Positions 8,959-15,144 of a stretch of DNA of 37,110 nucleotides are shown piece by piece. The stretch is from the NCBI GenBank assembly GCA_035307765.1, contig DATGHU010000008.1, positions 1 through 37,110 on the forward strand, in the 5' to 3' direction. The notes beneath the pieces are model-generated. The model was given only the letters and a program-made list of their open reading frames with translations, searched no databases and was not told the DNA's origin. The translations under genes were made by a program, and so were the position numbers. Origin of the DNA: a bacterium. GTDB taxonomy: Bacteria; Sysuimicrobiota; Sysuimicrobiia; Sysuimicrobiales; Segetimicrobiaceae. How positions within the stretch are numbered: position 1 is the first letter of the stretch; the number at the start of each line of letters is the position of its first letter.

Positions 8959-8988
8959 TCATCTTAACCACCGAAGGCAAACATACAT
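8959..8988 (-). CDS. Possible 9-residue leader peptide upstream of the HTH gene
   Basis: Minus-strand ATG at 8988 stands 5 nt after a perfect Shine-Dalgarno AAAGGAGG (9001-8994). It encodes M-Y-V-C-L-R-W-L-R and stops with TGA at 8961-8959, whose bases overlap an ATG (8962) in frame with the HTH protein. The arrangement of strong ribosome site, minimal ORF and overlapping restart looks like a coupled leader, but an ORF this short can occur by chance. Confidence 0.3.
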   Translation of the reverse strand: MYVCLRWLR

Positions 8989-8989
8989 T

Positions 8990-9028
8990 CGATCCTCCTT
9001 TGGGATCGATCATAGTCAAAAGGAGGAT
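8990..9028 (-). promoter_or_regulatory. Inverted repeat that would sequester a Shine-Dalgarno (or act as operator)
   Basis: A perfect 10-bp inverted repeat: ATCCTCCTTT at 8992-9001 and AAAGGAGGAT at 9019-9028, separated by 17 bp. In minus-strand RNA the 5' arm is an anti-Shine-Dalgarno and the 3' arm contains AAAGGAGG, 5 nt before ATG 8988. A second, mutually exclusive 6-bp stem pairs 8990-8995 with 9003-9008. Either a translational switch or a DNA operator in the intergenic region is possible. A GATAAT hexamer at 9032-9027 would place a transcript start inside the stem if it is a -10 element. Confidence 0.45.
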
Positions 9029-13048: not shown

Positions 13049-14086
13049 TTAGATCTCGGGGGGAGTCCTTCCGGCCATCCGCATCCGCAGAAACACCTGG
13101 GCCCGGTGATGGACGGTGTGCTCCCGCGCATACCAGAGGACGTGGTGGACGCTTTCACCCCCAAATGGGGTCTCGAGGGTCTTGGAAAGATCGGCAACCT
13201 CGAGCGACCCGAGGATTGTTCCGGTCGCCGCCTGAATCGCCTCGAGGACCTCAACCAGCGCGGCGGCGGTGGGGAAGTGCGGTCCCACCTGCTTCGCGAC
13301 CTGGGACACCTCTAACTTCCAGCCGTCCCCCGGAAGCCGACCGTGGGAGGGGGTCCTCCGACCTCCGACGCACTGGCCCACGAGAAAATCTTCGGTCATG
13401 ACGGTGTGTAGGATCAGGTCGTGAATCGTGGGCAACCCGGGGCTTGGGGCAACGGCCAGGTCCGCGTCGGGGAGGGTGCTGACCGCGCGCTTCAGCACGG
13501 TGTTCACCTGTTTCCAAAACGGGACGATGTCCGAAATCGTTACCTCCGGCTTGTCCCAGTGAGCGGCCGGTGTCTGTCCCATCACCGGGCGCGGCCATAT
13601 CTTGGGGGGGCGGTGTCCCAACATCCTGATCCGCGTGATGATTTGAGCGCGATGGTGTTGATCGTGCTCGACCAGATGCCAGAGGATCCACCGCAGTGTG
13701 TTGTCCTCACCCCAGGTCGACCGCCGCTTGAGGCAGAGATCGGCCGCGTCGAGCTCGGCCATGAACGCGTCGACCGGGACGTGCGCGGTCCGAAGGCCCT
13801 CGACGATCGATTGCACCGATGGGAAACGCCGCCGCCGCTCCTCACGCTTCTGCTCGTCGGTGAACCGGGTCCAGTCGTCGGGGCGCCACTCCCCGTATGG
13901 CCTTCCTTCGATGCCGCCGTACCACCAATATTCCTCAACCGTGATCGCGTGCCGCAACATCTCGCCAACAGGTTGGAGGCCGGGCGCCGGCCGAAACTCC
14001 AGCTCCTCATCTGACAGGACGCCGGCCAGCTCGGTCAAGAGGTGTCGATTATCTGCCCAGTACGGGAAGAGCTCCGCCGCCTTCAC
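13049..14086 (-). CDS. Tandem DinB-like (DinB/YfiT four-helix) protein
   Basis: 345 residues made of two DinB-like domains. Each has the three-His metal triad: His46, His141, His145 in the first and His227, His323, His327 in the second. Both end in the same pattern (HDQHHRAQIITRIRM and HTVHHRAQVFLRMRM followed by G-x-x-PP-x-I), showing internal duplication. DinB/YfiT proteins are metal-binding and often act as thiol (bacillithiol or mycothiol) S-transferases; the original dinB was DNA-damage inducible. GTG 14086 is chosen because AAGGAGG lies 5 nt upstream on this strand. It is divergent from an SOS-boxed radical-SAM gene. Activity is not predictable from sequence. Confidence 0.8.
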   Translation of the reverse strand: MKAAELFPYWADNRHLLTELAGVLSDEELEFRPAPGLQPVGEMLRHAITVEEYWWYGGIEGRPYGEWRPDDWTRFTDEQKREERRRRFPSVQSIVEGLRTAHVPVDAFMAELDAADLCLKRRSTWGEDNTLRWILWHLVEHDQHHRAQIITRIRMLGHRPPKIWPRPVMGQTPAAHWDKPEVTISDIVPFWKQVNTVLKRAVSTLPDADLAVAPSPGLPTIHDLILHTVMTEDFLVGQCVGGRRTPSHGRLPGDGWKLEVSQVAKQVGPHFPTAAALVEVLEAIQAATGTILGSLEVADLSKTLETPFGGESVHHVLWYAREHTVHHRAQVFLRMRMAGRTPPEI

Positions 14087-14218
14087 ACGATCCTCCTTAA
14101 AGTAGCGGTCCCCTCCGCTGTTGGCCGATGCCCCCATCCCTTCCCGGGTGCGCCGGCGGGATCCTCTCCTGCCCTCGATCGGGGGCGCTCGCTCCCAGTG
14201 GGTGGTAATGACGGGTGC

Positions 14219-14247
14219 TTGAATCGAACGTATGTTCGTATTATGAT
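14219..14247 (+). promoter_or_regulatory. SOS-type promoter: -35, LexA box in spacer, -10
   Basis: TTGAAT (14219-14224) and TATGAT (14242-14247) form a sigma-70-like promoter with exactly 17 bp spacing. The spacer begins with CGAACGTATGTTCG (14225-14238), a perfect dyad matching the Gram-positive/actinobacterial LexA consensus CGAAC-RNRY-GTTCG. LexA bound there would block RNA polymerase. The expected transcript start, about 7 nt after the -10, coincides with the ATG at 14254, implying a leaderless message. Confidence 0.8.
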
Positions 14248-14253
14248 ATGGCC

Positions 14254-15144
14254 ATGAACCTGACCCGTGAACTCGTCGAGACCGAGGTCAAAACGGTTCT
14301 CAATCGGGTGACGGGGATGCCGTTCCGCTGGTCAATTAACCCGTACAGGGGATGCTCGCATGCATGCCCCTTCTGCTACGCGAGGCGGACCCACTGGTTC
14401 ATCGAAGAGGATGGCGTCAATCAGTGGTCGTCCAAGATCTTCGTCAAGGTCAACGCCCCGGACGTCCTGCGGCGTGAACTTAACCGACCGAGCTGGAAGC
14501 GGGAGGAGGTGGCCGTGGGCACGGCGACCGACCCCTATCAGGCGATCGAGAGCCAGTACCGTCTCACCAGGGCGATTCTCGAGGCGCTGCGGGACTTCCG
14601 CACCCCGGTCGGCATCATCACCCGGTCTCCCCTCATCCTGCGGGATATCGATCTGTTGACCGCGATGGCTCGGCTGGCCGACGTCAGGGTTTGCATCAGC
14701 GTGGCCACGACCGACGCGGGGCTGGCCCGGCAGATCGAGCCCACGGTGGCCTCGCCCGCTCGACGCTTGAGCGCCGTCCACGCCCTCGCCTCGCGCGGGA
14801 TCCGGACGGGGGTCTTGCTCGCGCCGATCCTTCCGGGTCTCACCGATGGGCGCGAGAGTCTCGCCGGCGTGATCCGGGCCGCCCGCGATGCGGGCGCCGC
14901 GTTCGTCGGGCACGGCGTGCTCCACTTGGGCGAGGTGACGAAGGACGCGTTTGTCCGGTTCCTCAGCCAGCGCTACCCGGCGCTGCTGCCCCTCTACCGG
15001 CGGTTGTACCCCCGACGGTACGCGCCGGCAGGATACCAGCGGCGGGTGGCGCAGGTGGTCGCGGCTGAGAAAGCGCGGGTACGCCTGCTGGAGTCCCGCC
15101 ATCTCCACCCCCCGGCGGCCGCCCGGCAGCTCGGGTTGTTCTGA
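14254..15144 (+). CDS. Radical SAM protein, Rv2578c / SPL-like family, SOS-controlled
   Basis: 296 residues from ATG 14254 (an in-frame ATG at 14248 is the alternative). The radical-SAM cluster motif C-S-H-A-C-P-F-C-Y (CxxxCxxC) is near residues 31-39 after WSINPYRGC; this RGCxHxCxYC arrangement defines the Rv2578c-like family related to spore photoproduct lyase. AVGTATDPYQ, GIITRSPLI and GVLLAPILPGLTD are further family segments. The immediate upstream LexA box makes a DNA-damage role plausible, perhaps repair of a nucleobase lesion, but the substrate is unknown. Converges with the exporter gene, whose stop is 2 bp away. Confidence 0.85.
   Translation: MNLTRELVETEVKTVLNRVTGMPFRWSINPYRGCSHACPFCYARRTHWFIEEDGVNQWSSKIFVKVNAPDVLRRELNRPSWKREEVAVGTATDPYQAIESQYRLTRAILEALRDFRTPVGIITRSPLILRDIDLLTAMARLADVRVCISVATTDAGLARQIEPTVASPARRLSAVHALASRGIRTGVLLAPILPGLTDGRESLAGVIRAARDAGAAFVGHGVLHLGEVTKDAFVRFLSQRYPALLPLYRRLYPRRYAPAGYQRRVAQVVAAEKARVRLLESRHLHPPAAARQLGLF

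What the first reader, a model, noticed from the sequence alone, without database searches (positions are those of the whole stretch)
14219..14260. Textbook LexA-controlled, leaderless promoter for a radical-SAM gene
TTGAAT-17 bp-TATGAT with CGAACGTATGTTCG (a perfect Gram-positive LexA dyad) in the spacer, and the predicted transcript start on the ATG. It assigns an SPL-related radical-SAM protein of unknown substrate to the SOS regulon, hinting at a DNA-lesion repair or damage-response enzyme.
Basis: partly seen in the sequence, partly recalled or inferred. Interest (0 to 1): 0.7.

Follow-up and report, generated by a model that had tools for sequence, protein, structure and literature searches.

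The report
SOS-controlled, clamp-tagged radical-SAM repair enzyme
A soil bacterium's DNA-damage alarm (LexA) sits directly on the switch of a radical enzyme related to a UV-damage repair enzyme; the switch is conserved across several bacterial phyla, and the enzyme carries a conserved tail that should dock it onto the DNA-replication machinery.

Summary
Confirmed and extended. TTGAAT-17-TATGAT with a perfect CGAACGTATGTTCG dyad in the spacer is at 14219-14247. The genome has two lexA genes and a recA. The same kind of box sits before recA (also between TTGACA and TATACT), both lexA genes, ruvC and a Pol IV gene. In the host phylum (CSP1-3 lineage), 21 of 24 testable orthologues keep the box, with TTGAC or a near variant just before it, a -10-like hexamer just after it and a start codon 3-15 nt further on. 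So the near-leaderless promoter is conserved. Across 96 relatives in several phyla, 87 have the LexA core within 200 nt upstream, against 3 and 5 in control stretches. Proteobacterial relatives carry their own, different LexA boxes.

SOS control of SplB-like radical-SAM genes was already published for other phyla, so this part is a new lineage. What appears new is a C-terminal sliding-clamp-like motif (window ...QLGLF): Q292 and L295 are each kept in 43/45 relatives at the end of a variable tail. The enzyme has the spore photoproduct lyase fold but no conserved fourth cysteine. Best reading: an SOS-induced, clamp-tethered radical-SAM enzyme that repairs DNA lesions at stalled forks. Clamp binding, substrate and induction are inferred.

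The parts
14219..14224 (+). -35 hexamer TTGAAT
   Evidence: TTGAC(A/T/G) at the same place in most orthologues
14225..14238 (+). LexA box CGAACGTATGTTCG filling the promoter spacer
   Evidence: 0-mismatch box in most of the phylum's orthologues; scores 17.8 with a matrix from lexA promoters
14242..14247 (+). -10 hexamer TATGAT, 17-bp spacer
14254..14256 (+). start codon ATG at the predicted +1 (leaderless)
   Evidence: sequence; start codon 3-15 nt after the -10 in orthologues
14254..15144 (+). radical-SAM protein of 296 aa, related to the Rv2578c and PA0069 families
   Evidence: Pfam PF04055; NF038135 297 bits, below its 430-bit cut-off; AlphaFold model pLDDT 85, SP lyase as best PDB match
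14353..14376 (+). CX3CX2C cluster motif (C34, C38, C41), the only cysteines invariant in 45 relatives
15127..15141 (+). C-terminal QLGLF (residues 292-296), predicted sliding-clamp (DnaN) binding motif on a variable tail
   Evidence: Q292 43/45, L295 43/45, L293 34/45; strict motif 79/112 relatives against 0/335 control ORFs
13049..14137 (-). divergent DinB/YfiT-superfamily protein sharing the intergenic region; possibly under the same box (not shown)
   Evidence: Pfam PF05163 and PF12867; same neighbour in L023 and L025, same genus

Best explanation
In undamaged cells LexA binds 14225-14238, between and touching the -35 and -10 elements, and blocks RNA polymerase. After DNA damage, RecA-triggered self-cleavage of LexA frees the promoter and an mRNA starting at or within a few bases of the start codon (14254) is translated. 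The product is a radical-SAM enzyme with the spore-photoproduct-lyase fold. Its flexible C-terminal tail ends in a sliding-clamp-binding motif (QLGLF), which should bring it to DnaN at stalled replication forks or post-replicative gaps. There it most likely reverses or removes a DNA base lesion by 5'-deoxyadenosyl-radical chemistry, rather than acting as a spore enzyme. Shown here by sequence: box, promoter architecture, their conservation, lexA and recA with the same box, conservation of the tail motif, and the fold match of the predicted model. Inferred: LexA binding, induction, leaderless translation, clamp binding, lesion repair and its substrate.
For: Box and promoter. Two lexA and recA with the box; recA has the same TTGACA-box-TATACT layout. 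RuvC, a Y-family polymerase and an HRQ1-type helicase also lie by exact boxes. 21 of 24 testable phylum orthologues keep -35/box/-10/start; two of the three exceptions have a box further upstream. All 30 lexA promoters examined carry the box or a one-base variant. 87/96 relatives across phyla have the core within 200 nt upstream against 3/96 and 5/96 in control stretches. In 30 genomes from several phyla, 25 have the core at one mismatch or less before both lexA and this gene. All five alphaproteobacterial relatives read have a perfect GTTC-N7-GTTC and Aeromonas has CTGTATATATAAACAG. Published: splB SOS-regulated in alpha/betaproteobacteria (PMC3323433) and Bacteroidetes (PMC8565304); in Streptomyces venezuelae a radical-SAM gene described as like thymine cross-link repair enzymes is LexA-bound and mitomycin-induced (PMC9380542). 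Tail motif. SP lyase fold.
Against: No expression, binding or activity data for this organism. Clamp binding rests on a five-residue motif. The motif decays to QxxLF in Solirubrobacterales and is absent, or followed by extra residues, in a minority. The enzyme lacks a conserved H-donor cysteine beyond the cluster, so SP-lyase chemistry cannot simply be transferred, and the substrate could in principle be nucleotide, RNA or protein. L035 has lost the box.
Confidence: 0.66

Rival explanations
1. The gene is in the SOS regulon, but the enzyme is an ordinary spore photoproduct lyase acting on the SP thymine dimer by the known Cys/Tyr relay.
For: Top six PDB fold matches are SP lyase; 16 of 45 relatives match TIGR04070 weakly; published papers call these genes splB.
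Against: The window protein itself does not match the SP lyase models at E 1e-3; no fourth cysteine is conserved, position 147 being C in only 11/45, while SP lyase needs one (PMC5368176); about 16% identity to SP lyase; hosts are not known spore formers (my knowledge).
Confidence: 0.15
2. SOS-induced radical-SAM enzyme acting on something other than DNA lesions (for example a nucleotide pool, RNA or protein modification that assists the mutagenic polymerases); the tail still brings it to the clamp.
For: Substrate unknown; the conserved fold is shared with many unrelated radical-SAM chemistries; translesion factors such as ImuB also use clamp motifs (PMC10421592).
Against: Closest fold is a DNA repair enzyme; a distant relative on a Staphylococcus plasmid sits beside a DNA glycosylase, a 2OG-Fe(II) oxygenase and an Ada-domain gene.
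Confidence: 0.15
3. The dyad serves mainly the divergent DinB-superfamily gene (13049-14137, minus strand), the radical-SAM gene being a bystander.
For: Shared intergenic region, neighbour kept in the genus; B. subtilis DinB is damage-inducible (from memory).
Against: In other genera and phyla the box stays with the radical-SAM gene, while among L020-L043 only L023 and L025 have the DinB gene in their flanks; -35 and -10 lie around the box in the radical-SAM direction in orthologues.
Confidence: 0.03
4. Chance palindrome.
For: Eleven exact matches exist in the genome and some (for example L010, L011) lie inside genes.
Against: Conservation across the phylum and beyond and the same box at recA and lexA.
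Confidence: 0.01

Closest known systems
SOS-regulated splB (COG1533) in alpha/betaproteobacteria, Bacteroidetes and Streptomyces (PMC3323433, PMC8565304, PMC9380542)
   Same: LexA box before an SPL-like radical-SAM gene; the alphaproteobacterial and Aeromonas relatives read here carry their own LexA boxes
   Different: Another phylum and the Gram-positive type of box inside a near-leaderless promoter; no clamp motif was mentioned in the passages read or found by the searches made
Rv2578c / PA0069 family radical-SAM proteins (NF038135, NF033668)
   Same: Best HMM matches, 297 and 243 bits; same tree block; shared intein site between residues 40 and 41
   Different: Below both cut-offs (430 and 360 bits); no function is assigned to either family
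Spore photoproduct lyase (TIGR04070; PDB 4FHC-4FHG)
   Same: Fold (E 1e-7, TM 0.62) and CX3CX2C cluster
   Different: About 16% identity, no conserved H-donor cysteine, SOS control, C-terminal clamp-type motif
Clamp-tethered SOS factors such as mycobacterial ImuB (PMC10421592)
   Same: Damage-induced and carrying a QLxLx clamp motif
   Different: ImuB is an inactive Y-family polymerase; here the cargo is a radical-SAM enzyme and binding is unproven

Membership tests
LexA (SOS) regulon with Gram-positive type box | lexA and recA present in the genome | tested here: met
   two lexA, one recA
LexA (SOS) regulon with Gram-positive type box | same box before lexA and recA | tested here: met
LexA (SOS) regulon with Gram-positive type box | box overlapping the promoter of the target and conserved in orthologues | tested here: met
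   21 of 24 in the phylum; 87/96 across phyla
LexA (SOS) regulon with Gram-positive type box | LexA binding and damage induction | not testable with these tools
   published for a Streptomyces radical-SAM gene only (PMC9380542); its identity with this family is inferred from its description
Spore photoproduct lyase | SP lyase fold with CX3CX2C cluster | tested here: met
Spore photoproduct lyase | match to the SP lyase family model | tested here: not met
   no TIGR04070 match for the window protein at E 1e-3
Spore photoproduct lyase | conserved H-donor cysteine besides the cluster | tested here: not met
   only C34, C38, C41 conserved in 45 relatives; role in SP lyase from PMC5368176
Spore photoproduct lyase | repair of SP TpT | not testable with these tools
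   needs purified enzyme
Rv2578c family (NF038135) | score over the curated cut-off of 430 bits | tested here: not met
   297 bits
Rv2578c / PA0069 superclade | groups with these relatives and away from other COG1533-type proteins | tested here: inconclusive
   supported joins, but the backbone is partly open (87/57) and unrooted
Sliding-clamp binding protein | QLxLF-type motif in a flexible terminus, conserved | tested here: met
   tail without predicted secondary structure and with low confidence
Sliding-clamp binding protein | physical binding to DnaN | not testable with these tools
   no complex prediction or assay available

The most novel reading that the evidence does not exclude
A widespread, previously unrecognised class of replisome-tethered radical-SAM enzymes: SOS-induced under unrelated LexA motifs in several phyla, docked on the sliding clamp by a C-terminal QLxLF peptide, and directly reversing base lesions (of a kind not requiring SP lyase's cysteine relay) at stalled forks.
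Probability: 0.45. Interest if true: 0.82.

Novelty: new variant of a known kind. Interest (0 to 1): 0.62.

Why it matters
SPL-like radical-SAM genes recur in the SOS regulon of unrelated bacteria, yet their substrate is unknown. Conserved control under three different LexA motifs argues that the enzyme is a core DNA-damage-response function. The clamp motif gives a concrete, testable site of action (the replication fork) and a simple tail-mutant experiment that could reveal whether bacteria have a fork-coupled direct-reversal pathway besides photolyase, AlkB and Ada.

Tried and rejected
TIGR00620 is not in the library, so no SP lyase alignment was made to map the Bs C141 position; the absence of any conserved fourth cysteine was used instead. 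Sequence search of PDB found SP lyase only below significance (E 0.07); the fold search gave it clearly. Neighbourhood clustering showed only lineage-specific synteny and no convincing cross-phylum partner gene, so gene context does not help. A chance palindrome and control of only the DinB-type neighbour were rejected. Programmed -1 frameshifting as the explanation of L023/L039 was considered and not adopted, because it would keep the cluster cysteine in L023 but not in L039. Literature searches for Rv2578c with LexA gave nothing, and none of the searches for a clamp motif in this family turned up a relevant paper; a search on COG1533 with LexA returned only the Bacteroidetes LexA paper.

Full report
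Observation. The window holds TTGAAT (14219-14224), CGAACGTATGTTCG (14225-14238) and TATGAT (14242-14247), then in-frame ATGs at 14248 and 14254. The promoter scan found the same element, with 2 promoter-like sites in the region against 0.3 in shuffles. It is the only exact dyad in the window. In the 3.82-Mb genome the exact pattern CGAACNNNNGTTCG occurs at 11 places; with one mismatch 225 places against 102 for the reversed control pattern. ATG 14248 abuts the -10 and cannot be a transcript start, so the leaderless start is ATG 14254, giving 296 residues.

Is it a LexA box? The genome has two lexA genes over the family cut-off and one recA. The box stands before lexA1 (CGAACACCTGTTTG), twice before lexA2 (CGTACATTTGTTCG, CGTACAGATGTTCG), and before recA as TTGACAAAG-CGAACATATGTTTG-GTATACT, the same layout as the window promoter. 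Exact boxes also lie before ruvC, before a Y-family polymerase and by an HRQ1-type helicase. All 30 lexA orthologues examined across the phylum have CGAAC-N4-GTTTG or a one-base variant upstream. A matrix from those lexA promoters alone ranks 14225 first in the window, 17.8 against 10.9 for the next site. No binding data exist for this organism.

Conservation. The nearest genomes belong to the CSP1-3 lineage: two of them share contig lengths with public records titled 'Armatimonadota bacterium' and 'Armatimonadetes bacterium CSP1-3'; the GTDB name Sysuimicrobiota is from memory. Of 43 phylum genomes, 27 have a match. Of 24 orthologues with a readable N-terminus, 21 have the box at two mismatches or less, TTGAC or a near variant immediately upstream, a -10-like hexamer immediately downstream and a start codon 3-15 nt later. 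Two of the three exceptions have a box further upstream, at -334 and -463. So the near-leaderless LexA promoter is a conserved design, although 'leaderless' itself is a prediction. Over 96 relatives from several phyla, the core GAAC-N4-GTTC at one mismatch or less lies within 200 nt upstream in 87, against 3 and 5 in control stretches and 5.2 in shuffles. These sequences are related, above all the 20 Streptomyces, so the counts are not independent. In 30 genomes paired with their own lexA, 25 have the core before both genes. Proteobacterial relatives of the PA0069 family show lineage-specific boxes: five of five alphaproteobacteria have a perfect GTTC-N7-GTTC, Aeromonas has CTGTATATATAAACAG, and a Legionella relative has none; L. 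pneumophila lacks LexA as far as I recall (not tested).

The enzyme. Pfam gives Radical_SAM. NCBIfam gives Rv2578c 297 bits and PA0069 243 bits, both below their cut-offs. The AlphaFold model (mean pLDDT 85) matches spore photoproduct lyase as its six best PDB hits (E 1e-7, TM 0.62, about 16% identity). Only the three cluster cysteines are conserved in 45 relatives; position 147 is Cys in 11. SP lyase needs a further cysteine as H donor (PMC5368176), and the window protein does not match the SP lyase models. It therefore has SP-lyase-like architecture but is not shown to be an SP lyase.

The tail. The protein ends ...AARQLGLF. Relatives end QLSLL, QLDLF, QLFLF, QLALF, QLTLM and so on. In the 45-row alignment Q292 is kept in 43, L293 in 34 and L295 in 43, while residues 280-291 vary freely. 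A strict motif in the last 12 residues occurs in 79 of 112 relatives against 0 of 335 neighbouring ORFs; a looser one in 96 against 2. The control ORFs are mechanical and some are not real genes. This is the classic form of the bacterial sliding-clamp motif (my knowledge; ImuB's QLPLWG is a published example, PMC10421592). Most more distant COG1533-type proteins lack it, but QQSLFD in L200 and QLSLGI in L206 are similar. The Legionella relative keeps the motif (QLDLF) although no LexA box was found. Binding to DnaN was not tested.

Literature. SOS control of splB-like genes is published for alpha/betaproteobacteria (PMC3323433) and Bacteroidetes (PMC8565304). In Streptomyces venezuelae, vnz_31145, described as similar to enzymes repairing thymine cross-links, is LexA-bound and mitomycin-induced (PMC9380542); its reported box differs from the GGAAC-N4-GTTCT site seen in Streptomyces loci here, so identity with this family is inferred. 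SplB-like genes also neighbour ImuB-C genes (PMC3765255). No held paper found by these searches mentions a clamp motif in this family, but the library lacks most subscription journals.

Verdict. The regulatory finding is real and ordinary in kind: a new lineage for a known SOS association, with an unusually clear conserved promoter. The clamp-type tail is the new element and turns the gene into a testable hypothesis: a fork-directed radical-SAM repair enzyme.

Noticed in passing
L025, L033, L036, L041, L042 (orthologues in G004, G009, G006, G023, G042): Inteins interrupt the gene exactly between residues 40 and 41, so the third cluster cysteine is the residue after the intein; four of the five carry LAGLIDADG_3 domains, and weak Intein_splicing matches occur in three. 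The actinobacterial intein model NF038136 joins at the same site.
   Followed up: partly
L023 (G002) and L039 (G005), at the residue 40/41 junction: Both genes have a one-base deletion exactly at the intein insertion site while the rest of the frame and the box are intact. Could be a scar of homing-endonuclease cutting, assembly error or, less likely, frameshifting.
   Followed up: partly
G000:C13:37044 and G000:C44:137206: Two LexA paralogues, both with an Ala-Gly dipeptide at the expected cleavage position and their own boxes; two lexA copies are found in most genomes of the phylum.
   Followed up: partly
window 13049-14137 (-): Two-domain DinB/YfiT-superfamily gene divergent from the box, kept in the genus; might be co-regulated.
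   Followed up: partly
window 8978-8991: Second-best LexA-like site in the window (CAAACATACATTCG, score 10.9), upstream of the ORF listed from 9111.
   Followed up: no
L203 (Staphylococcus saprophyticus plasmid): A distant COG1533-type radical-SAM gene sits beside a 2OG-Fe(II) oxygenase, a DNA glycosylase and an Ada-domain gene, hinting at alkylation repair.
   Followed up: no
L004 and L006 (own genome): Exact boxes beside an HRQ1-type helicase gene (CGAACATATGTTCG) and just upstream of an HhH-GPD-type protein (CGAACAGGAGTTCG), candidate further SOS genes.
   Followed up: partly
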